The translations under genes and the position numbers were made by a program. Shown here piece by piece: positions 16,187 to 35,817 of a stretch of 64,000 nucleotides of DNA. Source of the stretch: Rossellomorea sp. AcN35-11 (GTDB taxonomy: Bacteria > Bacillota > Bacilli > Bacillales > Bacillaceae_B); contig CP128835.1 of assembly GCA_030388825.1 (NCBI GenBank), positions 3,280,001-3,344,000 on the forward strand. The letters are read 5' to 3'. The notes below the pieces were generated by a model. The model was given only the letters and a program-made list of their open reading frames with translations, was not told where the DNA came from and ran no database searches. Position 1 is the stretch's first letter. The number at the start of each line of letters is the position of its first letter.

Positions 16187-16723
16187 TTATTCTTCGTCTC
16201 CTTCTAAGAAGTCTGGATCTAACTCTTCGAATTCTTCATCATCCAAGTCACAATCCCAGTCTTCATCGTCACAACCTTCAGGATTTACAAGGACACATAC
16301 TTTTGTTTCTCCTATAACTTCCACTAGGAATTCACGTTCGACGTGAACAATGATCTTGTTACCGTTTGGTGAAATAACCGCTTCGCAGCAATTCGGCTGT
16401 TGCAGCACTCTGGCACATACTTCAATATCATCTAAGCAATCAGGGTCACGGTATTTCAGCTTAATGCAATCTGTATACTCTACTCTTTCTGTAACAACAG
16501 CTGTCTTACTGTTGTCATTATAAGAGTACCATACGTTAATATCGTACGAACCGTGAACTTCCACCTTCTTACCTACCTTATGTGCTTCATACTGATGATT
16601 GATGATCCAGCAGCCTAAAATGCTCGATGGATTATGCGGCGGGCAAATCGTATGATGAGACTGTGTAAATTTTCGTCCCTTCGCTACGACCGCTTTAGTA
16701 ATAATCTCTCTATATTCTGCCAT
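16187..16723 (-). CDS. cotE: Outer spore coat morphogenetic protein CotE
   Basis: This 178-residue protein matches CotE: the N-terminal [18 protein letters not shown], the central [18 protein letters not shown] near residue 22, and the strongly acidic tail ([20 protein letters not shown]). CotE surrounds the forespore in the mother cell and is the base on which the outer coat assembles; the acidic tail binds other coat proteins. Start ATG 16723 follows GAGGAGG; the frame is open a little further upstream. Two candidate sporulation promoters lie upstream. As in B. subtilis it follows miaB and ricA, but the mutS-mutL genes usually found after it are absent here. Confidence 0.97.
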
Positions 16724-16753
16724 TCGAGCGAACCTCCTCATTCATTTTCAATT

Positions 16754-19039: not shown

Positions 19040-19233
19040 GAAAAATCCCCTTTCTACCTCTATAACCAAACCGTTTATCTTCTATTATAAATTCGGCAGA
19101 ATGAACAATAAAACACTCTTGCACATTATAACAGTATAAAGGTTTTTAAGGATACATACAATAGAGGCGCTTAATTGATGGAATTTGTTTTACACATTCT
19201 CTATACGTGGATAAATGGGCTTCCATCCAAGTA

Positions 19234-19261
19234 ACTTACAATGCAAATGGTGCATAACGTA
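19234..19261 (+). promoter_or_regulatory. Sigma-K-like promoter of the first coiled-coil gene
   Basis: AC at 19234-19235, a 17-base spacer and CATAACGTA (19253-19261) match the sigma-K consensus (AC, 16-17 bases, CATANNNTA). The site lies 32 bases before the proposed start codon. The rest of the miaB-facing gap (19040-19233) shows no gene. Confidence 0.6.
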
Positions 19262-19293
19262 AAGTAAGACAAATACCCAGGGAGGAGATTCAA

Positions 19294-20529
19294 ATAGCAA
19301 AGAATGAACTAGAAACCCCTATGTATCACATTGAAAACCAAGAAAGATTATACTTCCATTCAAAAATAGATGAATTAAACCAACTCATAAAAAAACTACA
19401 AGAAAGTTATCTGTATGCTGAGGTCCAGCATTATAAAGAACTCGTCCATTCCAAACGACAGCAAATAGAGCATTTAAACAAAGAAATAGAAGTAAACCGG
19501 GTTTCTGAGGAAGAACTTCTCAAGGATCGAAATAGATTTAAAGAATGGAAAGAGAAGCTTGAGCATCAAGTAAATGACCTTCATCACCAACTGCTCACCA
19601 AAGATCAAATCGTACAAGAGAAGGTTGGGACGATTCATGAAATTGAACAGAAACTGCTGCAAACTGAAACGGAACGAAAAAGCCTTGAACTGTCTTTATC
19701 CAAGCTGGACAAAGAAAGCGAATCCGTCCGTCATCAGCTTCACCAGAAGGAAGAACTCCTTGATGAGAAGATCATGTCGATTCATCAACTTGAAAAATTA
19801 CTCCTTCAATCCGAAAATGAACTCAAGAGCCTCTCGCTTTCCATGTCCAAGTTGCAGGAAAGTCATGACAAGTCAACCTCAGAAAACAATACATTAATGA
19901 ATGAAAATCAAACCCTGCTTCAATCAAACCAATCCTTAAATACGAAGGTCCAAAGTCAACAACAGCATATTAATGATTTGAATGCTGCATTATCTCATTC
20001 TGAAGATACGAAAAAAGAAATGTTTTATAACCTGATAACTAAAACAGAAGAGTTAGAAAAACTATTGTCCGAGAGAAAGCATACTCTTGATTCATTACAG
20101 TTTGCAAAAGATCAATTGGTTGAAGCAGAAAAACAGAAAATGCTATATATAAAAACATTCATCAGCGAATATCAAAAGCACTTTGAAGAGAATGAGTGGT
20201 GGTTTTCCAGCCAATTTGCCGATATTGATCTACGGTCAAAACAACAGGAAGAGAGGATTGATGCAATAGAACAGGGGCAAGAACTTCACTTTCTGCATCA
20301 GAATGAAGCCCTGATAGAGAAATTTCAAGAAGTCGAAGAGCGGTTTATAGAATTTATTGAAGAAGTAGATTTGATCCGTGACCATAATTCCAGAATGACC
20401 CATAATCTATTTGAACTTAAACGTATGGTAGAAAATCAGAAGCGAAGTCAAACACATATTATCAAACCCCGTTTGAAAGCTTCTTCAGATAAGATGGTCA
20501 CACGAAGTGATGAAAATACAAGGGAATGA
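19294..20529 (+). CDS. Long coiled-coil protein 1, likely spore-associated; unusual ATA start
   Basis: Unrecognised. The protein of about 411 residues is almost wholly charged heptad coiled coil without signal peptide or membrane segment. A 49-residue unit is repeated in tandem (bases 19585-19731 and 19732-19878); both copies begin HQL and contain EK..IH..E..LLQ. Forty-nine is seven heptads, so the register is kept. GGAGGAG at 19281-19287 is spaced six bases before ATA 19294, in frame with the first ATG (19321), which itself has no ribosome site. I therefore place the start at 19294, read as MAKNELETPMYHIEN. Either ATA is used or a base was miscalled for ATG. The sigma-K-like promoter suggests mother-cell expression late in sporulation. 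Confidence 0.7.
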   Translation: MAKNELETPMYHIENQERLYFHSKIDELNQLIKKLQESYLYAEVQHYKELVHSKRQQIEHLNKEIEVNRVSEEELLKDRNRFKEWKEKLEHQVNDLHHQLLTKDQIVQEKVGTIHEIEQKLLQTETERKSLELSLSKLDKESESVRHQLHQKEELLDEKIMSIHQLEKLLLQSENELKSLSLSMSKLQESHDKSTSENNTLMNENQTLLQSNQSLNTKVQSQQQHINDLNAALSHSEDTKKEMFYNLITKTEELEKLLSERKHTLDSLQFAKDQLVEAEKQKMLYIKTFISEYQKHFEENEWWFSSQFADIDLRSKQQEERIDAIEQGQELHFLHQNEALIEKFQEVEERFIEFIEEVDLIRDHNSRMTHNLFELKRMVENQKRSQTHIIKPRLKASSDKMVTRSDENTRE

Positions 20530-20542
20530 CTTATCATAAAAG

Positions 20543-20576
20543 AAAGTTGCCCGGGAGATCCCATGGCAACTTTTCT
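20543..20576. terminator. Bidirectional terminator between convergent genes
   Basis: AAAGTTGCC (20543) and GGCAACTTT (20565) form the stem; T follow on the plus side and a mixed T/C run on the minus side. It serves the coiled-coil gene and the convergent orphan gene, which ends at 20583. Confidence 0.75.
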
Positions 20577-20582
20577 CTATGA

Positions 20583-21788
20583 CTAAAAGGTAATCCTGAT
20601 TGTATTGTTGGCATTAAGCTGAAGCCCTTGTTCTTCAAATAAAACAAATCCCAGTATAGTAGACGTTTCCTGTTCCTCAAGGTTTTCCAGCGTAAATTGC
20701 ATCCCTTCTACCATAATTGATTCACCAGGTGGAATGGTGGATTCCTGAATGGTCTCAATCCAATACTCACCCGTTTCATAAGCCTTTTCCAGCCAGTCTT
20801 CCCCCATATACTTCCATCCCTCTGCGCCATTTTGGCCTTGAATGGAAAAAATATCACTCATTTCAGGGGGAAGGATCTGCCCTCCAATTTCAATCTTATC
20901 AGGAGGGTTCATCCGCAGGCAGATTTTTGGATTCAATAACTCAGTGTTTCCCGTATTCTTAATAAACAAGTCGGCTTTAATAGAATATCGTTCCAGTTTA
21001 CGGTTAGGCAGGACAATATAATCAAAATATATTTCAGCAGAAGATTTCTTCGCCTCTGCTTCCCGTATTTTTCGTTTCGCTTTTTGTTTTTTGATTTCCT
21101 CGTATTCTTTATCATCAATTTGGGTTTTCCTAGCCGGTTTCTTCAGCTGTCCCCTGTTTTTTCCCGAATCCTCAACAGCTTCACCTGCTGTTTTTAATAA
21201 ATGTAGAACATTCAAATCAAGTAAGGTGGGTTTCTGGTTCCCAAGCAATACTTTCAACACACAGTTGGTTAAAATCGCAGGGGATTCATTCAGTAAGAAT
21301 TCTTCATCTTTACACTGGATGGAACATCTAAGGTGGGGAATCGAATGGCTCTCAGGCAATAGATAATACCCATTAAATTGCAGTTCTTTCTTATGGATTG
21401 AGAGAATTTTTTTTACATTGATGGGATTCAGCTTTTCATTATATCCAAATGAAACAAACCGTTTATCATTTTTCGTTTTACCCGAGACTAATTCAATCAA
21501 TAGATCCCCATCACTGAGCCCTTCTGAATTATCCAAAAATGCAATATCTATTCCATAATGAATTAATACCTCTTTGACTTTTTTATTAATCTCTTCATTT
21601 ATGCTTTCATTCGATGTGTTCACTGATAGCCATACTTTCTTTCCGTGTAGGGAACTATTCACTTCCACCGTTTGTTCTTCTTTGTTCCAATGATAATGAT
21701 ATTGGTTCTCCACACAAAAAAACTGGATGGCTGATAAACAATAATCGGGAACTGATCCCCAATCCTGATCATTGATCTTTAATTTCAT
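20583..21788 (-). CDS. Orphan two-part protein of unknown function (401 aa)
   Basis: I do not recognise a family. The N-terminal half (about residues 1-185) alternates beta and alpha, with DGDLLIELVSGKTKNDKRF near 95. A highly charged linker (KKQKAKRKIREAEAKKSSAEI) follows near 235, and the C-terminal half looks like a beta-sandwich that may bind a partner (NTGNTELLNPKICLRMNPP; TIPPGESIMVEGMQFTLEN). There is no signal peptide. The start ATG 21788 has GGTGG upstream. A sigma-K-type -10 lies on its strand, and the gene faces a glycosyltransferase driven by a sigma-K-like promoter, so a spore-surface role is possible. The N-terminal half might be a degenerate enzyme domain, but no catalytic residues can be named. 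Confidence 0.65.
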   Translation of the reverse strand: MKLKINDQDWGSVPDYCLSAIQFFCVENQYHYHWNKEEQTVEVNSSLHGKKVWLSVNTSNESINEEINKKVKEVLIHYGIDIAFLDNSEGLSDGDLLIELVSGKTKNDKRFVSFGYNEKLNPINVKKILSIHKKELQFNGYYLLPESHSIPHLRCSIQCKDEEFLLNESPAILTNCVLKVLLGNQKPTLLDLNVLHLLKTAGEAVEDSGKNRGQLKKPARKTQIDDKEYEEIKKQKAKRKIREAEAKKSSAEIYFDYIVLPNRKLERYSIKADLFIKNTGNTELLNPKICLRMNPPDKIEIGGQILPPEMSDIFSIQGQNGAEGWKYMGEDWLEKAYETGEYWIETIQESTIPPGESIMVEGMQFTLENLEEQETSTILGFVLFEEQGLQLNANNTIRITF

Positions 21789-21826
21789 TTACTGGCTCAC
21801 CACCCCTGGTTCTTAGTCGGTCTTTT

Positions 21827-21835
21827 TATCTTATG
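21827..21835 (-). promoter_or_regulatory. Sigma-K-type -10 element of the 401-aa orphan gene
   Basis: The minus strand reads CATAAGATA, a full match to CATANNNTA, 39 bases before the start. The expected AC at 16-17 bases upstream is not present, so the call rests on the -10 alone. Confidence 0.35.
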
Positions 21836-21887
21836 ATTCATGTCGACTATCTATGATGCAATCTCATAAGCTTGAATTCCAAAAAAC

Positions 21888-21914
21888 ACCAACAGAAATT
21901 ATTGACATAAGATA
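21888..21914 (+). promoter_or_regulatory. Sigma-K-like promoter of the first family-2 glycosyltransferase
   Basis: AC at 21888-21889, a 16-base spacer and CATAAGATA (21906-21914) fit the sigma-K consensus, 36 bases before the GTG start. Confidence 0.55.
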
Positions 21915-21950
21915 AATGGATGAATATTTATGTGAAGGAGAGAAAATGAC

Positions 21951-22832
21951 GTGGGAATGGATCATACGAAGGTATCTATCATCTTTCCTGTGAAAAATGA
22001 AGGTGTAAACGTTAAGAACACATTGACTTCACTTTTTTCCACAAATACTTCTATTGACTACGAAGTGATTATAGTTGACGATGCTTCTGAAGATCGGTGT
22101 TGTGATTTCATAGAAAAATCTCATTTTAAGAACAAAGTCAAGTTAATTAAAACGGAAGGAGTCGGTCCCTCGGTTGCACGTAATATAGGGGCAGAAAACG
22201 CTGCATCTGACTATTTACTGTTTTGTGATGCTCATTTATCTTTCGAGCCATTCTGGATAGATAAATTGTTGACACCTCTCAGATTGAATATGTCAGATGT
22301 TGTTTGTCCTGCCATCGCTTCAATGGACGACCCGAAGATTGTAGGATATGGACAGACGTTAAACAGCAGCTTACGAATACAATGGCATAAGAAAAAGCCA
22401 ATGTTATTCAACACCGCAGTCATTCCAGGAGGGTGTTTCTTAATCAAACGAGATGCCTTTTTTAAAGTGGGTGGATTCGAAACAGGATTTAGGACCTGGG
22501 GACATGAGGATGTAGAATTATCGATTAAACTTTGGTTGTTCGGTTATAGATGCAGCTGTGAGCCATCCGTGACGATCAAACATTTATTCAGGAAGTCTCA
22601 CCCTTATAAGGTAGATTATGATGGAGTGTATTATAACTTATTGCGAATGGCGTACCTTCATTTCAATGAAGCTAGAATTAAAAAAACGAAGGATTTAATC
22701 GTTCACAGGAGTGCCAAAAAAATTGACCGCCTTGTTCTTAAGGATGGTGTGGAGCAAAGAAGAAATAAATATTTAAAAAGCAGGGCTTTTAATGATGAGT
22801 GGTATTTCAAACATTTTAATATTCCTTTTTGA
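21951..22832 (+). CDS. Family-2 glycosyltransferase
   Basis: This 293-residue protein has a GT-A fold sequence. The N-terminus VSIIFPVKNEGVNVKNTLT is typical; EVIIVDDASED carries the nucleotide-binding aspartates, YLLFCDAHL stands for the DXD-type motif, and GGFETGFRTWGHEDVELSI near residue 175 is the acceptor-side motif shared with polypeptide GalNAc transferases and galactosyltransferases. It is soluble and acts in the cytosol. The GTG start 21951 lies 8 bases after GAAGGAGAG; ATG 21957 is an alternative. A sigma-K-like promoter and coiled-coil neighbours suggest that it glycosylates a spore-surface protein or polymer; donor and acceptor are unknown. Confidence 0.82.
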   Translation: MGMDHTKVSIIFPVKNEGVNVKNTLTSLFSTNTSIDYEVIIVDDASEDRCCDFIEKSHFKNKVKLIKTEGVGPSVARNIGAENAASDYLLFCDAHLSFEPFWIDKLLTPLRLNMSDVVCPAIASMDDPKIVGYGQTLNSSLRIQWHKKKPMLFNTAVIPGGCFLIKRDAFFKVGGFETGFRTWGHEDVELSIKLWLFGYRCSCEPSVTIKHLFRKSHPYKVDYDGVYYNLLRMAYLHFNEARIKKTKDLIVHRSAKKIDRLVLKDGVEQRRNKYLKSRAFNDEWYFKHFNIPF

Positions 22833-22837
22833 TTACG

Positions 22838-22873
22838 AAAACCATTTCTTTTTATCTAAAGAAATGGTTTTTT
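22838..22873 (+). terminator. Terminator after the first family-2 glycosyltransferase
   Basis: AAAACCATTTCTT (22838-22850) pairs with AAGAAATGGTTTT (22859-22871) and runs into T. It begins 6 bases after the stop. Confidence 0.8.
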
Positions 22874-23013
22874 ATATCATAGTGTTCGGAAAAACCTAGA
22901 TGATATTTTATACTTAGGAACCTTATAAATGTTTGTCCAAGCAACTTATTTTTTTTTGCATATTATATGAATGAAAGGTGCAAGATGTGATATCAATTCG
23001 AAGGGAGAAGTTA

Positions 23014-23130
23014 TTGGTGATGGTAAAAATGGGAAGATTACTAGAGAATAGCATTTCATCTCAGATACTTTCATGTTCTCTTCTATTAGATAAACATTAT
23101 GTATCATTAAGCTGCTGTCAGCCTATGTGA
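23014..23130 (+). CDS. Possible 38-aa cysteine-containing peptide
   Basis: A short frame begins at TTG 23014, GTG 23017 or ATG 23020 after AAGGGAGAAG, and ends in SLSCCQPM. It precedes the second glycosyltransferase gene and follows a CATATTATA sequence (22959-22967) that fits a sigma-K -10 without a proper -35. The peptide is unrecognised; the ribosome site is the main support. It could instead be part of an untranslated leader. Confidence 0.35.
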   Translation: MVMVKMGRLLENSISSQILSCSLLLDKHYVSLSCCQPM

Positions 23131-23216
23131 AACCAAAACATTATGCAGATACATTTAACATGAAAATTCATATAGTGAATACTCTATTCTTTCCCGTTGA
23201 AAGGAGGTGCTTAAAG

Positions 23217-23909
23217 ATGATTTACTTTTCAATCATCATCCCTTTTCACTCAAATGACCCTTATCGAAACAAAGCTTTAAATGTAGTTAAATATTACTAC
23301 AAAACGTTGTTTCCTAACACAGATATTATTATTGCTACTGATGGAAATGATCCTTACTCCAAGTCCACCGCAATAAATAATGCAGTAAAGAAAGTTAATT
23401 CTAAATTCATTGCCATTATAGATGCAGATATAATTTGCCCGAAGAATACTATACTATCAGGTTTAAAACTTCTTCCATACTTCCCGCTTGTCCTTCCATA
23501 TAACAGTGTGTTTGATTTGTCCCGTTCCATGTCTGAAGGAATATATAACAAACCAAAGTATTCTCTAAACACTTCCATGTTACATGGTAAACTTAGACAC
23601 AATAAAAATTCGATCCCTGTGGGGGGAATTAATTTAATTGATAAAGCATGCTTTATGAAGGTTAAAGGTTTTGATGAACGTTTTAAAGGATGGGGTGGAG
23701 AGGACGATGCATTTGTTGCGGTATGCGATACAATTTGTGGTCCTCATAAAAGACTAACCGGTGGCATTTATCATTTATGGCATCCATCTAAGAAAGCTGA
23801 AACAAACCCATACTATTCAAAAAACCATAAAATGGTTACGGAATACTTTAAAGCCTATAATAAAAAAGAAGAAATGATGAAAGTCCTTTCAAAAAGGAAG
23901 GGGATTTAA
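23217..23909 (+). CDS. Family-2 glycosyltransferase, galactosyltransferase-like
   Basis: This 230-residue GT-A protein starts at ATG 23217 (MIYFSIIIPFHSNDPYRNK), directly after a strong AAAGGAGGTG site; the frame is open upstream to 23127 but without that support. It contains FIAIIDADIICP (DXD-type motif, near residue 73) and KGFDERFKGWGGEDDAFVA near residue 155, the galactosyltransferase-like acceptor motif. It resembles the protein at 21951 in plan but not closely in sequence. It is soluble, and is probably part of the same surface-glycan function; the sugar is unknown. Confidence 0.82.
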   Translation: MIYFSIIIPFHSNDPYRNKALNVVKYYYKTLFPNTDIIIATDGNDPYSKSTAINNAVKKVNSKFIAIIDADIICPKNTILSGLKLLPYFPLVLPYNSVFDLSRSMSEGIYNKPKYSLNTSMLHGKLRHNKNSIPVGGINLIDKACFMKVKGFDERFKGWGGEDDAFVAVCDTICGPHKRLTGGIYHLWHPSKKAETNPYYSKNHKMVTEYFKAYNKKEEMMKVLSKRKGI

Positions 23910-23964
23910 GGATCCTACACTAGATGAACGTTACTGACTCTTCTTATGTTGAAAATTTTACTAT

Positions 23965-24002
23965 AAAAAAAAGAGTTCTGCCAAATGTCAGAACTCTTTT
24001 TT
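23965..24002. terminator. Bidirectional terminator between glycosyltransferase and JAMM gene
   Basis: AAAAAAGAGTTCTG pairs with CAGAACTCTTTTTT around CCAAATGT. T-runs are present on both strands, and the genes on either side converge. Confidence 0.85.
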
Positions 24003-24012
24003 ATGGAGTGAT

Positions 24013-24550
24013 TCATCCATAAAATTCAATATTAACTTCCTTCACATTACCATTTGTAATTTTAAAGCATTTAATATCTGCCTTCACCTTTCCTATTGCT
24101 ATTATGAAATAGTAAACATGTTGACTAGGGGCATACATAATATCATCCGTGGAAGGGACTGCTTTTCCATAAGGATGAGAATGATAAACCCCTACTAGTT
24201 CTTCTTTATTTTTTTTCAGCTCACGCATTATTCTATTTTGATCATCGATATCAATGGCAAACGTATAAGGAGAAGGATTTGTGTTTTTGGCCGGCCACAC
24301 ATTTTTACATACCTTCTTATGACCAGAAATAAATCCGCATGCCTCATTTGGAAGTTCCTTTTTACATTCTCCTACGAGTAGATGTCTTAATTTATTTGAA
24401 ATATAAACTTTTTCTTTAGGCGTTACACCCGCATCCCTTAAATCTAAACTTCGTTCGTTTCGCTTCCATTTTCTTTTTTTGTTCTTTTCTGATCCCAATG
24501 GGTACGCTTTTTTGCTGTTTGTAAATTTTATTTAGGTCATTAGATTGCAT
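24013..24550 (-). CDS. JAMM/MPN-domain metalloprotease-like protein, frameshifted in this assembly
   Basis: The protein of about 179 residues has a complete JAMM zinc motif in its C-terminal part: the glutamate in LPNEACGFISG, then VGVYHSHPYGKAVPSTDDI (HSHP, with the S and D that follow). Such proteins remove C-terminal extensions from ubiquitin-like or sulfur-carrier proteins, or act as other isopeptidases. Its gene reads from ATG 24550 (MQSNDLNKIYKQQ), after AAAGGGGGG, into the frame carrying the motif only if one base is dropped from the T7 run 24474-24480; this gives EQKRKWKRNERSLDLRDAG. The coiled-coil gene at 24571 ends 20 bases upstream, so the two form an operon. The target is unknown; no ubiquitin-like gene is seen nearby. 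Confidence 0.75.
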
Positions 24551-24570
24551 CTTTTTCCCCCCTTTCAAAT

Positions 24571-25737
24571 TCATCGCATGTATTTACTCGGATTAAACAT
24601 GGTCCGTTTTGTTTCAGACGCCATGGGAATCGTTCCGTACTCTTCAAATTGAGGGTTTCCTTGATCTGCTTTTTTATTTTGGTGTTTCATTTTTTTATAG
24701 AGATCATTTTTTTTATTTGACTGTGATTTTAGGTTTTGACGAAGCATAGTCAGTTCTTTTTCAAGCTCCGCTTCCCGCTGGCTTTTTCCCTCTCCCTTTC
24801 CAGTATCTTTTTCAGTCATTAACTTCAATTGTTTTTCAAGATCTGATTCTCTTTGTCTAAATTCATCAATTTGATTCCTTAATGCATGAAGTTCTTCCTC
24901 ATAGTGCTCCTCAATTTTCTTTAGCTCTTCATGCAGAGCACTCATTTTCTGTAAATAATTCTGAGTGGTTTCATCTCTTTCATTGCTCTTAAGCAATGAT
25001 TCCTTTACTTCATTAATATGATCAGAGTACGATTCTAATTGTTCTTCAATTAGATTGAGTTTTTTCATTAATTCAGGATGATGAGATTCTTGTTTCCCCC
25101 ATAAAAAACTCCACATTTTCGTATACCACCTTTCATTTTTCCGCTTCATATATTCCTTCTGTTTCTTTCTTACCCACGCCAATTCAGTTTTCAAGGTATT
25201 AGGATATACCCCAACCTTCATGGACCTGTTGTTCTCCGATATAAAGTGCTCATTGGCTTCAATCAACAAAGAAATTACATCATTTTTAACACGGTCAAGA
25301 ATGGATTTCTTTTGACTATGAATGTTTTCATAAATCACCCTTATTTCTGGAATGGCTGTGGGGAGAAAAAGCTCATCAACTTCCCGTAATTCATGTGCAG
25401 CTATGCTTTCATTTTGGTCTGAATAAAAGATTTCATCATTATATGATTCAGATTCCTCTGAAACGTGCCCATGCTTTCGTTTAAGTTCCAATTCACTATG
25501 TCCAAGTAAATGTTCAATTTGTTCTGTCAACATTTGAATAGTTTGATGATTCTCTGCAATCTCTAATTGATACACCTTTTGTTTTGCTCTTTCCCGGGAC
25601 AATTCCTCTGACACATTCTTCATTCGCCTTGAATAATGACTATAGAGAGATTCAAGTTCTTCAGATAGCAAATGAATCTCATTCACGACTTTCGGATAAG
25701 CTGTCATGTCTATCGCTTCATTCTCCTCCACTATCAC
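24571..25737 (-). CDS. Long coiled-coil protein 2, likely spore-associated
   Basis: Unrecognised. The 388-residue protein is heavily charged and predicted as coiled coil over most of its length, except for a central stretch near residues 150-215 with tryptophans (ERWYTKMWSFLWGKQESHH). The tail ends TKRTMFNPSKYMR. No signal peptide is seen. I keep the GTG start at 25737; ATG 25707 (MTAYPKVVNEIHLL) is an alternative after GGAGGAG at a rather long distance. A sigma-K-like promoter lies 31 bases upstream of the GTG and the JAMM gene follows, so expression in the mother cell and a place in the spore surface are inferred. Confidence 0.75.
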   Translation of the reverse strand: MIVEENEAIDMTAYPKVVNEIHLLSEELESLYSHYSRRMKNVSEELSRERAKQKVYQLEIAENHQTIQMLTEQIEHLLGHSELELKRKHGHVSEESESYNDEIFYSDQNESIAAHELREVDELFLPTAIPEIRVIYENIHSQKKSILDRVKNDVISLLIEANEHFISENNRSMKVGVYPNTLKTELAWVRKKQKEYMKRKNERWYTKMWSFLWGKQESHHPELMKKLNLIEEQLESYSDHINEVKESLLKSNERDETTQNYLQKMSALHEELKKIEEHYEEELHALRNQIDEFRQRESDLEKQLKLMTEKDTGKGEGKSQREAELEKELTMLRQNLKSQSNKKNDLYKKMKHQNKKADQGNPQFEEYGTIPMASETKRTMFNPSKYMR

Positions 25738-25767
25738 CCATATACACCCCCATAGATTTCTTTGTTT

Positions 25768-25795
25768 TATCTTATGTATTGTTTGTTTTACATGT
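25768..25795 (-). promoter_or_regulatory. Sigma-K-like promoter of the coiled-coil 2 / JAMM operon
   Basis: On the minus strand AC (25795-25794), a 17-base spacer and CATAAGATA (25776-25768) match the sigma-K consensus. Confidence 0.6.
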
Positions 25796-25796
25796 T

Positions 25797-25824
25797 AAAA
25801 AGGGAGAGAGATCCCTCTCTCCCT
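25797..25824 (-). terminator. Terminator of the TP-rich cysteine protein gene
   Basis: AGGGAGAGAG and its complement CTCTCTCCCT form a long stem around ATCC, followed by T on the minus strand. It begins 8 bases after the stop of the gene at 25832. Confidence 0.8.
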
Positions 25825-25831
25825 CAATCAA

Positions 25832-27016
25832 CTAACTATCCAACCCGCCAAGCAGGTCTGCAAATGTATCACACTCACCAATTTCTACTAATGCTTCAAC
25901 TGCTCCACTATCGAAGATAATAACATTAGCTGAGTTTCTCAAGATTAAGCGGAAGCCTTCTGTGATAGGACCCAAAAATCCTGTGAAAATCTGTAATTCG
26001 TAGAACAATTGTTCAGGTACTCCATCAAAGTTGCGGATACCTTCTCCTACAACCGTCAATGCGTCATCTCCGCATGTTACGCTATCGATGGATGATGGAT
26101 CAAAATTAAAGCTGAAGTCAGGTTGGAATCCTGTTCCTGGCGGAGTTGGTGTAGGACCTACTTCAGTATCAGTGAAGGAGTATGACCATGAGCTATCAGC
26201 AAGTGAACACTCTTGACAGATTTCAGCTCTAAGAGTAGATAGTCCGGTTACTTCGTCTGCAGTTCCACCGGAGCCAAATGTTGCCGTTGTATCTTCATTT
26301 CTGGCAAGGGCCGTCGCCTGGCATTCACAGTTATCAACCGGGAATAATCCTGGGCATTGACGAGGGAATTGCAGTAAGCTCAAATCACATTTAAGTCTGT
26401 CTTCTGGTACTGGAATATTGTTTGGACGAGGGAAACAGAATTTAGCCAGTACTTCGAGTTTAACTGGATATTCTACTTGAACATCTTTACATAGAACGAC
26501 TCTCAATGGAATCATTGGTCCAAATGGATCCGGTCCCATTAATACACCGCCAGATGACGCAATTACTTGTGTCGCTCTGATGTTTAAGTTGTCGTTAGTG
26601 ATTCCTGTCGGTACGCAAAGCATTATTTCATCCGTAAATTGGGTACGGACAGTGAAAGAACACTCAGCTACCCCATCGATTAGGATCGTCACTTCCACAG
26701 GTACTGTCCACACGATCAGAACTTTTCCAGGATTTCCATTTTCAATGATGGTACCTGTTACACTGACGTCAGATGGATCTACCGGAGCCGTTTGCACCTC
26801 TACTCTCTGACCTGCCGCCAGTGCCGCACTGACTGCTTCACGACAAGCTTCATCAGGAATAAAGTTCTTGTTTTCGTACCTGTTTGCAAAGAATACCCAA
26901 TCATATACTTTGTCTACTCGGATACATTCTGGAGCCAAGTCGTTTGGATCCAAAGGAATACCTGTTGGCGTTGGTGTCGGAGTCTGGGAACCCCTAATTT
27001 GTTTACGCTTCTTCAA
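25832..27016 (-). CDS. TP-rich, cysteine-bearing putative spore-surface protein (394 aa)
   Basis: I cannot name a family. After a basic start (MKKRKQIRGS) come TPTPTPTG and then CIRVDKVYDWVFFANRYEN, a phrase I associate loosely with Bacillus spore-surface proteins. The rest is mainly beta-type and acidic, with about a dozen cysteines, several in a central cluster (CPGLFPVDNCECQ; AEICQECSLADSSWSY), and a second proline/threonine linker (GPTPTPPGTG) near residue 290. No typical signal peptide is present, as expected for coat proteins made in the mother cell. Disulfide cross-linking of coat or exosporium is plausible. A near-perfect sigma-K promoter precedes it. The GAAGGAAGGA leader supplies the ribosome site. 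Confidence 0.7.
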   Translation of the reverse strand: MKKRKQIRGSQTPTPTPTGIPLDPNDLAPECIRVDKVYDWVFFANRYENKNFIPDEACREAVSAALAAGQRVEVQTAPVDPSDVSVTGTIIENGNPGKVLIVWTVPVEVTILIDGVAECSFTVRTQFTDEIMLCVPTGITNDNLNIRATQVIASSGGVLMGPDPFGPMIPLRVVLCKDVQVEYPVKLEVLAKFCFPRPNNIPVPEDRLKCDLSLLQFPRQCPGLFPVDNCECQATALARNEDTTATFGSGGTADEVTGLSTLRAEICQECSLADSSWSYSFTDTEVGPTPTPPGTGFQPDFSFNFDPSSIDSVTCGDDALTVVGEGIRNFDGVPEQLFYELQIFTGFLGPITEGFRLILRNSANVIIFDSGAVEALVEIGECDTFADLLGGLDS

Positions 27017-27062
27017 AAAAATCCTTCCTTCCTTAAATGAATATTAGATTTCTATCACACTA

Positions 27063-27089
27063 TATCCTATGGACTTGGAAGAAAATGGT
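27063..27089 (-). promoter_or_regulatory. Sigma-K-like promoter of the TP-rich protein gene
   Basis: The minus strand has AC (27089-27088), a 16-base spacer and CATAGGATA (27071-27063), a full match to the sigma-K elements and spacing, 46 bases before the start codon. Confidence 0.65.
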
Positions 27090-27454
27090 ATAGATAAAAT
27101 ACCTATTTTTTCCAAATAATTCCCGTAATAAATAATAGACACACTAATAGTCGTTTTAAACGATAAAAAAATAGGCTTATCATATAGACATTTGCCAGTA
27201 CTCCAATATTCAAGTCGGCATATCATATACCATAAGGAAAGGGGGAATATATTTTACCAAACAATTTGCTCCACCTTAAATGTGAAATCAAGTCACCATT
27301 ATAAAAATGACATTCATATAAAGTACTTTAGAAACAAGTTTCATTAAGGTTACGCTTACTCTTTAAATGAATATGACGAACGTAAACGCTTTTCTTATCA
27401 TTGCAATGATATTCATTATAAATATAAAAGCCATGTAAACACTGGGAGGTTTTC
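27090..27454. other. Non-coding gap between divergent surface genes
   Basis: No gene is seen. The gap holds a 16-bp palindrome, TATCATTGCAATGATA, at 27396-27411, and A+T-rich sequence in which I could not place a convincing promoter for the plus-strand gene. Confidence 0.5.
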
Positions 27455-27514
27455 ATGGCTTATTTCAATGGACACGTAGCGTTCATCCATCTGATCACAT
27501 ATACATATAAGTAA
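27455..27514 (+). CDS. Possible 19-aa leader peptide
   Basis: ATG 27455 follows GGGAGG at a normal distance and opens a 19-codon frame (MAYFNGHVAFIHLITYTYK) ending 23 bases before the next gene. It could be a leader peptide or a small coat peptide; length and lack of known relatives leave this open. Confidence 0.35.
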   Translation: MAYFNGHVAFIHLITYTYK

Positions 27515-27537
27515 AACAGCAGAAGGAGTCTGTCGAC

Positions 27538-28540
27538 ATGAGACAACTTTCCCCCATCCAGCTGCAGCAGCAGATCATCCATTATAAATCTGAGTTGGAA
27601 AAGTACAAAAGAAAATGTGAAACATTGGAGGACGAATACCTCGCCAAGAAATATACAGCTCTCAAAAAAGAAAATCGTCAATTACAATCCTATATAGATA
27701 CCCGAAATCAGGAACTTACTAGCAAGGAAACCGAAATGAAACAAGAAACATTAAAATATCACTTACTGCTCTCATCACAGGAAAAGGAAATGAAAAAGCT
27801 CCGTTCTTCTTTCAACCAGCTTAAAGAACAACTACAAAAACATACTCTTCAAGTAAGGCATTCAACAAAACAAAATGAATATTTACTTCAAAGAAAAGAG
27901 GCGCAGCAAGGAGAGATTCTCTCATTACAGGAAGAGAACAGTTATCTCAGAGATGAGAATGATTGTTTATGGAGAAGGATAAAAATGTCAGAGAAACAAT
28001 TATATAGAGAAGAAATCGACTCTTGGCAACTTGAAGAACTTCTGAAGGATTTCAAAGAGAAGTTGGATTACAGGACTCAATGTTTCGAAATGGATATTAC
28101 ATTTGCCGATGATGAAAAAAACCGACTCAAGGACATTAATCAATTATTAGAAACGCAGCTGTACTTAACAGAAATCGAATTATACGAAACTCACAAACTC
28201 CAGAAAGAATACGATCTCTACTATAAAAACATCATCCATTTTCAAAAACAAAAACTTTCTGAAGCAGATCAACGCCAAAAGAAGAAGGAATCGTTTCTCC
28301 AACTAAAAGAGAAGGAAATAAAAGAACTACAGCAAGATAAAACAGAATATATCACTGCCCTCAAAAGCGTAAGGGGAAAGCATCCGACAAATGAAAGGGG
28401 AAGTCGTTGCAATCGATAAAGAACCACCCTCTGCAAAAGATACCCTAACAAAATATGAGAATTCCATCCATCACCTTCAATATACGAATGCATTGTTGCT
28501 CCAGGAAATCAATAAAATAAAAAACAAACCGGGTCCCTAA
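27538..28540 (+). CDS. Long coiled-coil protein 3, frameshifted near its end
   Basis: Unrecognised. A charged coiled-coil protein of about 333 residues starts at ATG 27538 (MRQLSPIQLQQQIIHYKS) after AGAAGGAG. As read it stops at 28419, but dropping one G from the G4 run 28373-28376 gives VRESIRQMKGEVVAID and carries the coiled coil on to a stop at 28540. The terminator hairpin begins within the last codons of the extended frame, which supports the longer version. It is like the proteins at 19294 and 24571 in plan (long, soluble, charged heptads) without obvious close sequence identity. A structural role on the spore surface is inferred from company only. Confidence 0.7.
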
Positions 28541-28558
28541 ATAGAAACCGGTTTGTTT
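28522..28558 (+). terminator. Terminator overlapping the end of coiled-coil gene 3
   Basis: AAACAAACCGG (28522-28532) pairs with CCGGTTTGTTT (28548-28558). The stop codon of the frame-corrected gene lies in the loop. Confidence 0.8.
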
Positions 28559-28982
28559 CTATTATATATATTCCTTCACCAGATACACAAAATACATTTT
28601 CTCCTTAGTTGCTATAAACGTGACCTTTTTAAAATAGTGCATGAAACTCCACATCCAATGCTAGTCCAATATCATTATTCTACGTATTAGTTTATCAATG
28701 TTGAAACACTTCAACATTGATTTATCTGAGCCTCTTTATTCAAGGTTGAATAAGTTCGACGTTGGTCATTTTTGTGCTTGAATTCATCAATAATATGACA
28801 GATTAAATACAAAGAGTTTAAAAACGCTGTGATGATTTATTCCTTCCTTCATTGTTAATCATTTATCATTCGCTTTTCTGCATTATTATATTTTACATAT
28901 TTTTACATATATAGGTACCCATCCACTCAATCTATTTATCTTGTACATATGCTTATAGAGTAGAAAAAATATAAAGGTGATG
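28559..28982. other. Non-coding A+T-rich gap upstream of the glycan operon
   Basis: No gene is seen. Short imperfect repeats of GTTGAA and TTCAAC occur at 28698-28760. Promoter-like strings (CATATGCTTA at 28946, TACATAT twice) are present, but none has a convincing partner at the right spacing. Confidence 0.45.
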
Positions 28983-28988
28983 ATGATT

Positions 28989-30266
28989 ATGAAACTGTGT
29001 GTTATGGGACTTGGGTATATTGGCTTACCCACTGCGGTTATGTTTGCACAGCATGGATTAGATGTCGTTGGGGTGGATATTAATGAAAATGTAATAAATC
29101 AATTAAAGAATAGAAGCCTCCACATTGAAGAACCCGGCTTAAAGGATCGCTTCCACTCTGTTATGAATTCAGGGAAGTTGACCGTATCAACCGTCCCAAC
29201 TGAAGCGGATGTATATATTATTGCTGTCCCTACTCCTATTACAAAAGACAAAGAAGCTGATTTATCTTATGTGATCAGTGCTACAGAAGCAATACTACCT
29301 TTCCTAAAAAAGGACAACCTAATTATTCTCGAATCAACTGTACCCCCAAGAACTACTGAGGATATTCTTCTGCCTATACTTTCCCAAACCGGCTATAAAG
29401 TTGGAATAGATTTACTCGTTTCCCATTCTCCAGAAAGAGTGCTTCCAGGAAGATTATTTGAGGAATTGATTGAAAATGATCGCATCGTTGGTGGAATAAA
29501 TGAAGAATCCTGCCTGAAAACCGTATTCCTCTATAAAAAATTTGTAAAAGGAAATATTTATATGACGGATGCAAAGACGGCAGAGATGGTCAAACTTATT
29601 GAGAATACGTATCGTGATGTAAATATTGCATTAGCGAACGAATTGGCTGTAATTGGAGAACAGCTGGACATCAATATTTGGGATGCGATTAAACTTGCCA
29701 ATTATCATCCAAGGGTGAATATTCACTTCCCTGGGCCTGGAGTTGGCGGTCATTGTATTGCAGTGGATCCATGGTTTATTGTTGAAAAATCTCCAGAAAC
29801 ATCCAAATTAATTCATTTATCAAGAACAATAAATGAAACTGCCCCCTCCAGAATAGTAAATATTATTGAACAAACAGTAAAAGACATTGACGATCCTATA
29901 ATCACCCTGTGCGGGCTTGCCTACAAAGGCAATATTGACGATGTTCGAGAAAGCCCTTCACTTGTCATCATGTCTGAACTAATAAAGAAAGGATACAAGC
30001 TTAAATTACATGATCCTCTAGTCAAAGAGAATTTCGCCAACAAATACGTTCATTTTGAGGATGCCATTGATAACACGGATTGCCTGGTTTTTTTAACCAG
30101 ACATGATGGATATTTAAAATTGAATTTAATTGATTACAAAGAAAAGTTCAATCATAGGAATGTTGTTGATACTATCAACTTGTTGAATCATGAAATGTTA
30201 CAAAATGAAGGATTTGACACTTACTTAGTTGGATATAACAATCTTGAAAAGGAGAAAAAGCAATGA
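28989..30266 (+). CDS. UDP-sugar 6-dehydrogenase (UDP-ManNAc / UDP-glucose dehydrogenase family)
   Basis: This protein of 425 residues has the three-domain plan of the nucleotide-sugar dehydrogenases: the NAD motif MGLGYIGLPTAVMFAQHG at the N-terminus, SHSPERVLPGRLFEEL mid-protein, the catalytic cysteine in FPGPGVGGHCIAVDPWF near residue 255, and the C-terminal LAYKGNIDDVRESPS. The GRLFEEL and GGHCIAVDPWF versions resemble UDP-N-acetylmannosamine dehydrogenase (WecC type) more than UDP-glucose dehydrogenase, so the product may be UDP-ManNAcA. I start at ATG 28989 (MKLCVMGLG) after AAAGGTG; ATG 28980, 28983 and GTG 28977 are also in frame. First gene of a tightly coupled operon; its uronate would feed the following glycosyltransferases. 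Confidence 0.9.
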   Translation: MKLCVMGLGYIGLPTAVMFAQHGLDVVGVDINENVINQLKNRSLHIEEPGLKDRFHSVMNSGKLTVSTVPTEADVYIIAVPTPITKDKEADLSYVISATEAILPFLKKDNLIILESTVPPRTTEDILLPILSQTGYKVGIDLLVSHSPERVLPGRLFEELIENDRIVGGINEESCLKTVFLYKKFVKGNIYMTDAKTAEMVKLIENTYRDVNIALANELAVIGEQLDINIWDAIKLANYHPRVNIHFPGPGVGGHCIAVDPWFIVEKSPETSKLIHLSRTINETAPSRIVNIIEQTVKDIDDPIITLCGLAYKGNIDDVRESPSLVIMSELIKKGYKLKLHDPLVKENFANKYVHFEDAIDNTDCLVFLTRHDGYLKLNLIDYKEKFNHRNVVDTINLLNHEMLQNEGFDTYLVGYNNLEKEKKQ

Positions 30267-31858
30267 TTCCATTTTCAAATGTAAAAGTGGCGTGTATTTT
30301 AGACGAATTTTCCTATGAATGTTTTAGGCATGAATGTAAATTCATAAAAGTATATCCTGAAAATTGGCAATCGACACTTATCAGAGAAAAACCAGATATA
30401 TTATTCGTAGAATCTGCTTGGCAAGGAAACGAGTCTAGGTGGCAATATAAAGTTGGAAATTACCAGAATAATGACTTGAGCGACTTAAAATTGTTAACCC
30501 AATGGTGCAAATCACATAATATTCCTACTGTATTCTGGAATAAAGAAGATCCTGTCCATTTTAACTTTTTTATTAAAGCCGCTAAATTGTTTGATTATGT
30601 CTACACTACAGATGAAAATTGTGTTGAAAAGTATAAAACATATTTAGGTCATAACAGGGTACAAACTTTGACATTTGCGGCTCAACCAAAATTACACAAT
30701 CCAATACGTGTCAATGGTTTTAAAGAAAAGAACATTATGTTTGCAGGTAGTTATTATGGGAAGCAGCACCCAGAACGAAATCAAGATGTTCATCTACTTT
30801 TAGATGTTGCTTCAATATATGGGTTAGATATATATGATAGGAATTACAATAAAAATTCTGTATTTAAATTCCCGCAAAAGTATAAGCGTTATATCAGGGG
30901 TTCACTTGAATATCAACAACTCGTTAATCATTGCAAAAAATATAAAATATGCTTAAATGTTAATTCTGTAAAAAATTCAAACACAATGTGTTCCAGAAGA
31001 CTTTTTGAACTACTGGCATCTGGAGTTTCGGTTGTAAGTACAAATTCGAATGCAATTCAAAGCATGTTTAGTAATTTAATTTCAGTAGTTGCCAACAAAA
31101 CTGATGCAAATTTTATTATATCAAGCATTTTAAATAGAGAAGATTGGAGGAAAATAAGAGAAGTTAAAGGTATCAGGTTAATTTACGATCACCACACCTA
31201 CACACACAGAATATATAATATATTAAAAAGTTGTAAGATACCTGTAGAGAACCCGTTCTTTAAAGATATATTAGTGTTAGGATATGCAGATACACTTAAA
31301 AAAGTCGAATTACTTCTTTCTTCATTTAACAAGCAAAATTATAGAAATAAAAAATTGATCATCTTTATAGAAAACTCACTGCCATTGGATAGGTTCAATA
31401 ACATTCATCATAAGGATTATATTGAATTTATCAAAATTACTAACACAAACATTAAATTATCTGATTATTGTAAAGGGAGTACCTTTGCTGCGTTATTCTA
31501 TCCAACGAATTATTATGGACCTCATTATTTAAAAGATTTATATAATGGGGCAATTTACTCTGAAGCATCAATTGTTGGTAAAGCAGGTTATTATCAAAGG
31601 AGATCTACTGGAAATATTGCTTTACTAAATAAAGATGAGCACTTTGTATACAATAAAAATATATTAAATACAGGAAGTATAATAAAACATGAATTCATTG
31701 AAACTTCTCAATTGACTCTGACAGACTTATTAAATCTCAAAAGTTTCAGGAATAAAATTGTAGATCAAATATGCTTTTCTATAGATCCATACAATTTCAT
31801 TAATAGTGAAAAAGACATCAACAACGAGTATCAAATAATTGATAAAGTGAAAGTTTAA
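30263..31858 (+). CDS. CgeB-like glycosyltransferase (group 1)
   Basis: This 531-residue protein overlaps the dehydrogenase gene by the ATGA junction. Its N-terminal half fits the DUF3880/CgeB type: LDEFSYECFRHECKFI, then LFVESAWQGNESRWQYKVGN near residue 50, and TVFWNKEDPVHFNFFI near 95. The GT-B end is CSRRLFELLASGVSVVSTNS near residue 245. The last 180 residues form an extra domain (ILVLGYADTLKKVELLLSSF). CgeB proteins are spore-maturation glycosyltransferases acting on the outermost spore layer in B. subtilis, and this is the strongest link of the operon to sporulation. The sugar is unknown. Base composition is clearly A+T-richer than in the flanking core genes. Confidence 0.8.
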   Translation: MIPFSNVKVACILDEFSYECFRHECKFIKVYPENWQSTLIREKPDILFVESAWQGNESRWQYKVGNYQNNDLSDLKLLTQWCKSHNIPTVFWNKEDPVHFNFFIKAAKLFDYVYTTDENCVEKYKTYLGHNRVQTLTFAAQPKLHNPIRVNGFKEKNIMFAGSYYGKQHPERNQDVHLLLDVASIYGLDIYDRNYNKNSVFKFPQKYKRYIRGSLEYQQLVNHCKKYKICLNVNSVKNSNTMCSRRLFELLASGVSVVSTNSNAIQSMFSNLISVVANKTDANFIISSILNREDWRKIREVKGIRLIYDHHTYTHRIYNILKSCKIPVENPFFKDILVLGYADTLKKVELLLSSFNKQNYRNKKLIIFIENSLPLDRFNNIHHKDYIEFIKITNTNIKLSDYCKGSTFAALFYPTNYYGPHYLKDLYNGAIYSEASIVGKAGYYQRRSTGNIALLNKDEHFVYNKNILNTGSIIKHEFIETSQLTLTDLLNLKSFRNKIVDQICFSIDPYNFINSEKDINNEYQIIDKVKV

Positions 31859-31871
31859 AGAGGTGGTGACT

Positions 31872-33008
31872 TTGAATAGAATGAGGAAAATAGCGATATA
31901 TGCAGAAATAGATTTAAATATTATAGATGGGTCCTCCATTTGGTTAGTATCCTTAGCTGAAATGCTACTACAAGATAATAACAATTCCGTTAAAGTAATA
32001 GTATATAAATCAATTAAAAATAAACAATTGATAAATCCTTTGTTGAAATACAAAAATTTCCATATGGTAGACAATCACCCTACAGGTAAATTAACCCAAA
32101 TAGGTGCACTTCAGCAAATAGATTTACTATTTAGTAAAGAGAAATTTGACTTGTTAATTGTAAGAGGGTTCAATTTCTCAAAATTTTTAGTGAGTAATTC
32201 TAACGATCTAATAAGAAACAAGGTTTGGTTTTACTTTACAGATTTCCCTACGTCGCAGTCAAATAAAGACGATATAGAACAATTTAAGCGGATTCTTAAG
32301 TTTTCCAACAAGATTCTATGTCAAACAAATGAACTGTTACAATATTACAAACAAAAATTGAATACCAATGATAACAATTTCCTTTTACTCCCACCTTTAC
32401 TCCCTAAAATTCATACAACTTCAAACACTTCAATTCTTATTAACAATCAAATAATATATGCCGGAAAGTTATCCCCATATTGGATGATGCCAAATATGAT
32501 TTTTGCTTTCAACAAAATTAAAGACCCTAAATTGAAATTTTTAATAATCGGAAATAAATTTCATAATCACCCGTATAAAGAAAATTATAAGGAAATGGTA
32601 AAAAAAGCATTTAGTTCGAACACAAATATTAAATGGATTGAGAGTGCCTCTCGAGAAGAAGTATTTAGAAACATTAAAGAGAGTTATATCGGTATTTCAT
32701 GGAGAGATTCTTCTTTAGATCATTCAATGGAGATATCCACTAAAGTATTGGAATATGGTTTGTTTCATAAACCAGTTATATTAAATCGAACTAAACTTCA
32801 TGAAAATTTATTTGGTACTGATTATCCATTGTACGCCAATTCTGAACTTGAATTCATAAAAAAAATCAAATTAGCATTTGACAATAAAGATATATATAAT
32901 CTTGTTGCTGAGCGCATCCATCAAGTAAGTTTAAGACACACATTTGATTCCGTTTATCAAAAAATTCTGCCTCACATAAAAGGATCTTCAAGAGGTGAAA
33001 ATCAATGA
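31872..33008 (+). CDS. Group-1 (GT-B) glycosyltransferase
   Basis: This protein of 378 residues has weak N-terminal similarity and a recognisable GT-B C-terminal half: IIYAGKLSPYWMMPNMIFAF near residue 196, then a nucleotide-sugar region ending in DHSMEISTKVLEYGLFHKPV, where the conserved glutamate of group-1 enzymes sits near residue 290. The start is ambiguous (GTG 31863, GTG 31866, TTG 31872); AGAGGTGG is best spaced for TTG 31872. It follows the CgeB-like gene directly and overlaps the next by ATGA. A+T-rich; acceptor unknown. Confidence 0.75.
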   Translation: MNRMRKIAIYAEIDLNIIDGSSIWLVSLAEMLLQDNNNSVKVIVYKSIKNKQLINPLLKYKNFHMVDNHPTGKLTQIGALQQIDLLFSKEKFDLLIVRGFNFSKFLVSNSNDLIRNKVWFYFTDFPTSQSNKDDIEQFKRILKFSNKILCQTNELLQYYKQKLNTNDNNFLLLPPLLPKIHTTSNTSILINNQIIYAGKLSPYWMMPNMIFAFNKIKDPKLKFLIIGNKFHNHPYKENYKEMVKKAFSSNTNIKWIESASREEVFRNIKESYIGISWRDSSLDHSMEISTKVLEYGLFHKPVILNRTKLHENLFGTDYPLYANSELEFIKKIKLAFDNKDIYNLVAERIHQVSLRHTFDSVYQKILPHIKGSSRGENQ

Positions 33009-35691: not shown

Positions 35692-35751
35692 TTGATGAAA
35701 AACTTTAGAGATGACTGCACACCTGTAAAAAAATGTCCTAAGCGGATTGTG

Positions 35752-35784
35752 AATGACCCCTATATTGAGAAGGGGTCATTTTTT
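35752..35784 (+). terminator. Terminator of the glycan operon
   Basis: AATGACCCCT (35752) and AGGGGTCATT (35771) pair, followed by six T. It lies about 60 bases after the lyase gene. Confidence 0.85.
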
Positions 35785-35817
35785 CAATTCCCGCTAATGA
35801 TGATTATATCTGTATTC

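What the first reader, a model, noticed from the sequence alone, without database searches (positions are those of the whole stretch)
19234..28558. Sigma-K-linked spore-surface gene island with three long coiled-coil proteins
Five genes in 9 kb have CATANNNTA -10 elements close upstream (19253, 21906, 25768, 27063, and 21827 on -10 only); four of these also have AC at the 16-17 base spacing expected for sigma-K. The genes encode coiled-coil proteins (19294, 24571), a TP-rich cysteine protein (25832), a family-2 glycosyltransferase (21951) and an orphan protein (20583). A third coiled-coil gene, a second glycosyltransferase and a JAMM protease lie between them. CATANNNTA is not rare in A+T-rich DNA, so single matches mean little; the repetition with correct spacing at gene fronts is what counts. 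I infer a mother-cell coat or exosporium layer, possibly not described before.
Basis: partly seen in the sequence, partly recalled or inferred. Interest (0 to 1): 0.8.

Follow-up and report, generated by a model that had tools for sequence, protein, structure and literature searches.

The report
Spore outer-layer assembly gene island
This stretch of a Bacillus-like bacterium's chromosome looks like a conserved kit for building the outermost layer of its spores, and one protease gene in it seems to lack a normal start signal, which would be unusual if confirmed.

Summary
Observation confirmed. The interval has 6 spaced AC-N16/17-CATANNNTA sites against 0.48 expected; 0 of 1000 shuffles reached 6. 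Four of 8 gene fronts carry one, as do 0 of 25 hand-picked other fronts in the window. In Rossellomorea relatives the sites stay fixed before diverging genes: cc2 19/20, bmq 20/24, cc1 15/19, gt293 15/20, neighbouring cotE 14/16; korB, ymcA, miaB and topB give 0.

The "TP-rich cysteine protein" belongs to the BMQ_0737 family, known from the outermost Priestia megaterium spore layers. The "orphan" is its genomic partner: 116 of 299 genomes hold both, within 3 kb in 99 of 110 with listed positions. It is modelled as an amidase-like domain without invariant histidines plus an Ig-like domain. cc2 and cc3 keep end motifs across genera. A sugar cassette extends the island to about 37 kb.

New: the JAMM protease overlaps a conserved 44-codon ORF in the +1 frame and often has no ordinary start codon. 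Recoding or non-canonical coupled initiation is implied, not shown.

Verdict: a real spore-surface module around a known protein, with partners I found undescribed.

The parts
16187..16741 (-). cotE, outer spore coat protein gene, two genes away from the island
   Evidence: Pfam PF10628 CotE, 291.6 bits
16825..16851 (-). sigma-K-type site before cotE (CATACAATA, AC at 16)
   Evidence: kept in 14 of 16 genomes
19234..19261 (+). sigma-K-type site before cc1 (AC-N17-CATAACGTA)
   Evidence: spaced site in 15 of 19 genomes, -10 at -37 to -41 in 17 of 19
19294..20529 (+). cc1, coiled-coil protein; likely begins at an ATA codon 6 nt after GGAGGAG
   Evidence: no Pfam match; ATA, ATT or ATC at this place in 18 orthologues
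20583..21788 (-). partner protein ('orphan'): amidase-like fold without invariant histidines (about 46-185) plus Ig-like domain (about 243-401)
   Evidence: alignment; model; structure comparison; co-occurrence with BMQ
21827..21835 (-). -10-like element CATAAGATA before the partner gene, no AC at 16/17
   Evidence: CATANNNTA at -43 to -48 in 15 of 20 genomes
21888..21914 (+). sigma-K-type site before gt293 (AC-N16-CATAAGATA)
   Evidence: 15 of 20 genomes
21951..22832 (+). gt293, family-2 glycosyltransferase
   Evidence: Pfam PF00535, 93.4 bits
23127..23909 (+). gt260, second glycosyltransferase (ATG at 23218 after a ribosome site is a likelier start)
   Evidence: Pfam PF02709, 39 bits; sequence
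24013..24498 (-). JAMM/JAB metalloprotease-like ORF; conserved domain about 24013-24390; the listed TTG start lies inside the 44-codon ORF and has no ribosome site
   Evidence: Pfam PF14464, 67.2 bits; JAMM motif in 24 of 24
24416..24550 (-). conserved 44-aa micro-ORF ending FKGCGCNA*, overlapping JAMM, which is in the +1 frame
24571..25737 (-). cc2, coiled-coil protein with conserved C-terminal FNPxKY tail
   Evidence: tail kept in several genera; no Pfam match
25768..25795 (-). sigma-K-type site before cc2, micro-ORF and JAMM (AC-N17-CATAAGATA)
   Evidence: 19 of 20 genomes
25832..27016 (-). bmq, BMQ_0737-family morphogenetic spore coat protein (TTG start)
   Evidence: NCBIfam NF052457, 77.5 bits, cut-off 71
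27063..27089 (-). sigma-K-type site before bmq (AC-N16-CATAGGATA)
   Evidence: 20 of 24 genomes
27200..27227 (+). conserved sigma-K-type site about 300 bp before cc3 (AC-N17-CATATCATA)
   Evidence: alignment
27428..27461 (+). conserved hairpin with loop CTGGGA and matching changes in both arms
   Evidence: one copy in this genome
27538..28419 (+). cc3, coiled-coil protein with conserved N-terminal motif QxIIHYKSEL; ORF ends early, tail in another frame to about 28541
28977..35691 (+). sugar cassette: nucleotide-sugar dehydrogenase, three glycosyltransferase-like proteins (one CgeB-like by eye), heparinase II/III-like protein
   Evidence: homologous genes beside bmq in L097
36323..37024 (-). 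methyltransferase, probably part of the cassette
   Evidence: Pfam PF13847, 56.7 bits; homologue in L097

Best explanation
The interval is the main part of a mother-cell gene module that builds the outermost proteinaceous layer of the spore and decorates it with sugars, in the genus Rossellomorea.

Supported by computation: (1) late mother-cell promoters of the sigma-K type, conserved; (2) a BMQ_0737-family shell protein; (3) a partner protein that travels with BMQ_0737 across the order; (4) coiled-coil proteins whose rods diverge while end motifs stay fixed (cc2, cc3); (5) a glycosylation cassette.

Inferred: BMQ_0737-type protein forms the sheet. The partner, an amidase-like fold with no invariant histidine joined to an Ig-like domain, binds rather than cuts, and couples the sheet to glycan or to inner coat. 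cc2 (FNPxKY tail) and cc3 (QxIIHYKSEL head) are spacer rods docked by their ends. The JAMM protein trims or matures one of these parts, at low dose, because its translation depends on a short upstream ORF. The confidence is for a sigma-K-driven outer spore-layer module; the individual roles are less certain.
For: Sigma-K sites. BMQ rows of the loci: 24 of 38 spaced against 26 of 406 other ORFs; my recount without same-genus rows (7) and duplicated genomes (2) is 21 of 29. sigK intact. BMQ_0737 family above cut-off, and 207.5 bits for a distant homologue. Outermost location of BMQ_0737 in P. megaterium (PMC4656864 passages). Partner and BMQ in the same 116 of 299 genomes, 16 partner only, 8 BMQ only, Fisher p about 3e-54 ignoring ancestry; within 3 kb in 99 of 110. 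Fold of partner. End motifs. Order miaB-[cc1, partner, gt293 ... JAMM, cc2, bmq]-korB in 17 of 20 joined relatives. Variable sugar genes in between.
Against: No expression, proteome or microscopy data for any Rossellomorea. cc3 and the sugar cassette have no clear sigma-K site of their own. The partner's -10 lacks the spaced AC in 19 of 20. The bmq model is poor (pLDDT 55.7), so no lattice can be argued from structure. JAMM is not constant: 6 of 24 chosen BMQ or partner genomes had no match and 2 more only a weak one. Eight of 35 genomes of the genus lack bmq. In P. megaterium the exosporium needs other, plasmid-borne genes too (PMC4674009 passages). The roles of partner, rods and JAMM are inference.
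Confidence: 0.72

Rival explanations
1. The genes form a vegetative surface-polysaccharide or capsule locus; the sigma-K-like sites are A+T-rich coincidences.
For: Half of the wider locus is sugar genes; CATANNNTA alone is only mildly enriched.
Against: Sites conserved in position and spacing while genes diverge; 0 hits in front of korB, ymcA, miaB and topB; BMQ_0737 family match; similar gene sets in other genera.
Confidence: 0.06
2. A real spore module, but an inner or middle coat layer rather than the outermost shell or exosporium.
For: [quoted passage not shown] megaterium (PMC4656864 passages); the partner's amidase-like fold is shared with the cortex enzyme CwlD.
Against: BMQ_0737 itself is reported among the outermost proteins; glycosyltransferases fit a surface.
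Confidence: 0.18
3. For the JAMM gene: translation by reinitiation at a GTG or a non-standard codon (GTA, ACG, ATT or similar) coupled to the micro-ORF, not by frameshifting.
For: A GTG in the JAMM frame with AAAGG 5-7 bases upstream occurs at the matching place in L175, L176, L206 and L207 and in G018 and G002; no conserved codon before the micro-ORF stop; three genera have a same-frame stop instead of a frame change; cc1 of the same island also seems to use non-AUG starts.
Against: The -1 frame was never seen among the roughly 17 genera with an intact pair; 12 of 21 intact loci have no ATG, GTG or TTG from -60 to -15 of the domain.
Confidence: 0.5

Closest known systems
BMQ_0737 of Priestia (Bacillus) megaterium QM B1551 and NCBIfam NF052457
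   Same: Family match above cut-off; outer spore layer (PMC4656864 passages)
   Different: The family match covers residues 31-226 of 394; the C-terminal part is extra. The passages that I saw do not mention the partner, coiled-coil, micro-ORF or JAMM genes
Bacillus subtilis sigma-K regulon (consensus and cotE P2: PMC517825 passages), crust genes and CgeB (recalled)
   Same: Late mother-cell promoters, cotE control, glycosyltransferases
   Different: None of the structural proteins here matches a named crust protein in the family scans
B. cereus-group exosporium proteins (BclA, BxpB/ExsF; PMC4674009 passages)
   Same: Outer shell as the presumed product; glycosylation of BclA is recalled
   Different: No BclA- or BxpB-like match in the Pfam and NCBIfam scans of ten proteins of this region
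Amidase_3 cell-wall hydrolases such as AmiC2, Rv3717, CwlD (family name recalled)
   Different: No invariant histidine in that domain in 18 orthologues; no Pfam amidase match
RF2 (prfB) +1 frameshift genes (recalled)
   Same: Downstream frame is +1 to a short upstream ORF
   Different: Codon before the stop is not conserved; no product shown

Membership tests
BMQ_0737 family (NF052457) | Profile score over the curated cut-off of 71 bits | tested here: met
   77.5 bits, residues 31-226
BMQ_0737 family (NF052457) | Needed for integrity of outermost spore layers | not testable with these tools
   Reported for P. megaterium (title of the 2014 paper in the reference list of PMC4656864; paper itself not held)
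Sigma-K regulon | AC and CATANNNTA at the right spacing close before the gene, conserved: cotE, cc1, gt293, cc2, bmq | tested here: met
Sigma-K regulon | Spaced site before the partner gene, cc3 and sugar cassette | tested here: not met
   1 of 20 and 1 of 17 spaced; variable cassette of relatives 11 of 164 ORFs, as in the flanks (13 of 194)
Sigma-K regulon | Transcription lost without sigK | not testable with these tools
   sigK gene itself present
Amidase_3 peptidoglycan amidases | Fold | tested here: met
Amidase_3 peptidoglycan amidases | Conserved zinc-binding histidines | tested here: not met
   No invariant or 90% conserved His in the domain among 18 sequences; ligand positions were not superposed
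JAMM/JAB metalloproteases | E and H-S/T-H-x7-S-x2-D motif | tested here: met
   24 of 24; Pfam PF14464
Programmed +1 frameshift genes | Downstream coding frame constantly +1 to an upstream ORF, with a switch of coding constraint at its stop | tested here: inconclusive
   +1 in about 14 genera and a switch in Rossellomorea, but 3 genera have a same-frame stop, and L189 beside BMQ shows no micro-ORF
Programmed +1 frameshift genes | Conserved slippery site | tested here: not met
   Codon before the stop varies
Programmed +1 frameshift genes | Fusion product detected | not testable with these tools
   Needs mass spectrometry or tagging

The most novel reading that the evidence does not exclude
A spore-specific JAMM protease is made only by recoding (a +1 frameshift in about 14 genera, stop readthrough in about 3) at the end of a conserved 40-60-codon basic, cysteine-tailed micro-ORF. 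The cell would thus make much small coat protein and a little micro-protein-protease fusion, which matures the BMQ_0737 shell whose partner is an inactive amidase-like adaptor.
Probability: 0.3. Interest if true: 0.82.

Novelty: new variant of a known kind. Interest (0 to 1): 0.64.

Why it matters
Outer spore layers outside B. subtilis and the B. cereus group are poorly known (recalled). Here a known protein, BMQ_0737, gains recurrent genomic partners: a pseudo-amidase/Ig protein in most genomes that have it, and in part of them docked coiled-coil rods, a micro-ORF and a JAMM protease. That turns one phenotype into a testable assembly pathway. If the JAMM gene is recoded, sporulation would have a conserved case of recoding, and one that gene finders would misannotate. 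The apparent non-AUG start of cc1 points the same way.

Tried and rejected
BMQ structure: model too poor to search (pLDDT 55.7); not searched. Rfam on 18900-29100: two hits only, both below their gathering scores, one preQ1-II-like (26.6 bits against 47), taken as chance. The bmq-cc3 intergenic element was checked as a genomic repeat and rejected: one copy in this genome. The JAMM TTG start at 24498 was judged unlikely: up to the micro-ORF stop substitutions fall mainly on third positions of the micro-ORF frame (50-67% by window, 90% in the core), and right after it mainly on third positions of the JAMM frame (46-67%, 21 genomes including the window, three divergent ones left out beforehand, pairs over 45% different dropped per window). 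A conserved slippery codon was sought and not found. Sigma-K control of the variable sugar genes one by one was not found. L192 (G051) was first counted as a same-frame case; its JAMM match has three internal stops, so it looks decayed and is now left out.

Paper searches: CATANNNTA with sporulation, BMQ_0736/0738, Priestia megaterium with spore coat, exosporium and morphogenetic, non-AUG start with AUA and sporulation, Mov34 with spore coat gave none. BMQ_0737 gave two papers, of which I saw passages. Rossellomorea with exosporium gave one endolysin paper, ribosomal frameshift with spore coat one copper paper, cgeB and spore crust two papers; these four were seen as listings only. 'Undescribed' rests on these searches of an open-access library alone.
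Full report
Setting. The window lies in a 4.8-Mb genome (G000; listed as 99.99% complete with 9.23% contamination). Named loci with the closest bmq genes are Rossellomorea species and unassigned Bacillus strains. Around the finding the order is topB, a YeiH-like gene, cotE, ymcA, miaB, the island, then korB (topB, miaB and korB named from recall).

Observation. Every cited -10 element is present. The interval has 6 AC-N16/17-CATANNNTA sites against a shuffled mean of 0.48, and none of 1000 shuffles reached 6. Four of 8 gene fronts have one (shuffled mean 0.034); 0 of 25 hand-picked other gene fronts do; the window outside 16-36 kb has no spaced site. A published sigma-K motif from 58 promoters has a -35 and a -10 element with a 14-16 base gap, the logo of mapped promoters is called very similar, and cotE P2 is placed under sigma-K (PMC517825, passages).

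Footprint. I compared upstream regions in relatives. Counts include the window; hits starting beyond query residue 60, covering under 30% of the query, or with under 200 bases of sequence were dropped. Spaced sites within 300 bp: cotE 14 of 16, cc1 15 of 19, gt293 15 of 20, cc2 19 of 20, bmq 20 of 24. The partner gene keeps a -10 at -43 to -48 in 15 of 20, but a spaced AC in 1 of 20. cc3 has 1 of 17, gt260 0 of 5, JAMM 0 of 24, the dehydrogenase 1 of 3. Controls: korB 0 of 20, ymcA 0 of 18, miaB 0 of 18, topB 0 of 13; yeiH 0 of 7 spaced but 7 of 7 for a bare -10. The coding sequences meanwhile fall as low as 27-33% identity for the coiled-coil proteins. In the loci, BMQ genes have a spaced site in 24 of 38 rows against 26 of 406 other ORFs. 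Seven of the 38 rows are of the same genus and two genomes occur twice; my recount without these is 21 of 29. Partner and cc3-like genes there have few: 4 of 32 and 2 of 22. The test used 22 of 36 and the unchanged background.

The shell protein. The gene at 25832 matches NF052457, BMQ_0737 family morphogenetic spore coat protein, over its cut-off. In P. megaterium, BMQ_0737-GFP lies in the outer set of proteins and is reached by antibodies (PMC4656864, passages). In the genus 27 of 35 genomes have a match: 25 at 78% identity or more, 2 at 37-38%; 8 have none.

The coiled-coil proteins. cc3 has a conserved head, QxIIHYKSEL, found by an iterated profile in coiled-coil genes beside BMQ in several genera, and again at the N-terminus of short partner proteins. 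cc2 ends in FNPxKY across genera. Between the ends the sequences drift, though parts of cc1 and cc2 stay at about 60%. I infer rods with docking ends. cc1 gave no tblastn hit at 1e-3 in the ten other-genus loci. In this window cc3's conserved tail lies in another frame.

Micro-ORF and JAMM. Between cc2 and JAMM lies a 44-codon ORF with a good ribosome site (24550-24416). It ends in KGCGC plus one to a few residues in 23 of 24 genomes; the other (G035) ends in DCCK. JAMM follows in the +1 frame, overlapping. In 21 genomes substitutions sit mainly on third positions of the micro-ORF frame up to its stop (50-67% by window, 90% in the core) and then on third positions of the JAMM frame (46-67%). 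Read by eye, the same +1 relation appears in about 14 genera. Three others (L179, L182, L183) have the micro-ORF in the same frame as JAMM with one stop between; L192 does too, but its JAMM has three internal stops and looks decayed. None has the -1 frame. With equal chances and independence, no -1 in 18 would have probability 0.0007 (L192 included); shared ancestry weakens this. Of 22 loci with a micro-ORF (window), 13 have no ATG, GTG or TTG from -60 to -15 of the domain (12 of 21 without L192), while all 21 more distant JAMM genes examined do. L189 lies beside BMQ, shows no recognisable micro-ORF and no such start either; it is outside these counts. Against frameshifting: the codon before the stop varies, and L175, L176, L206, L207, G018 and G002 have a GTG behind AAAGG in the right place. 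I therefore leave recoding and coupled, partly non-canonical initiation both open.

cc1 start. Eighteen orthologues with a clear ribosome site have ATA (13), ATT (3) or ATC (2) at the expected start, and four of them (G034, G026, G018, G002) lack the downstream ATG; one divergent orthologue (G008) and one fragment (G011) are not counted (G026 read from the alignment). Against this: G018 and G002 have an in-frame ATG 6 bases upstream touching the ribosome site, and G010 one 15 bases upstream.

Cassette. In relatives the stretch between gt293 and JAMM is 8-14 kb and holds mostly sugar genes, named by eye; here most of it sits between cc3 and korB (28977-37024). L097 carries homologues of the dehydrogenase, CgeB-like, heparinase-like, methyltransferase and glycosyltransferase genes beside BMQ and JAMM, so the cassette probably belongs to the module.

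Mechanism. Shown: conservation of promoters, families, folds and order. Inferred: late mother-cell synthesis, a BMQ sheet, the partner as adaptor, rods as spacers, sugars as coating, JAMM as low-dose maturation protease. Family membership of bmq is met; the partner shares the amidase fold but is not filed as an amidase.

Noticed in passing
window 24416-24550 and 24013-24498: Conserved micro-ORF overlapping JAMM in the +1 frame, JAMM without an ordinary start codon; possible recoding
   Followed up: yes
window 19294: cc1 seems to start at ATA; ATA, ATT or ATC at this place in 18 orthologues after a strong ribosome site
   Followed up: partly
window 27200-27461: Conserved sigma-K-like site, palindrome TATCATTGCAATGATA and hairpin with matching arm changes between bmq and cc3; small RNA or cc3 leader
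   Followed up: partly
window 28391-28541: Conserved cc3 tail lies in another frame than the cc3 ORF, so this copy looks frameshifted
   Followed up: partly
G034:C4:403647, G027:C1:1016820 and others: A BMQ_0737-like stretch also lies inside open frames of about 2,080-2,570 codons in 18 of the 35 genomes of the genus
   Followed up: no
relatives G031, G007, G020: Some cassettes hold genes that look like ATP sulfurylase, APS kinase, CysQ and sulfotransferases (named by eye), suggesting sulfated spore glycan
   Followed up: no
window 17469-17747 and 17894-19069: miaB appears as two ORFs in the window (main part and TRAM domain); whether it is one frame in relatives was not checked
   Followed up: no
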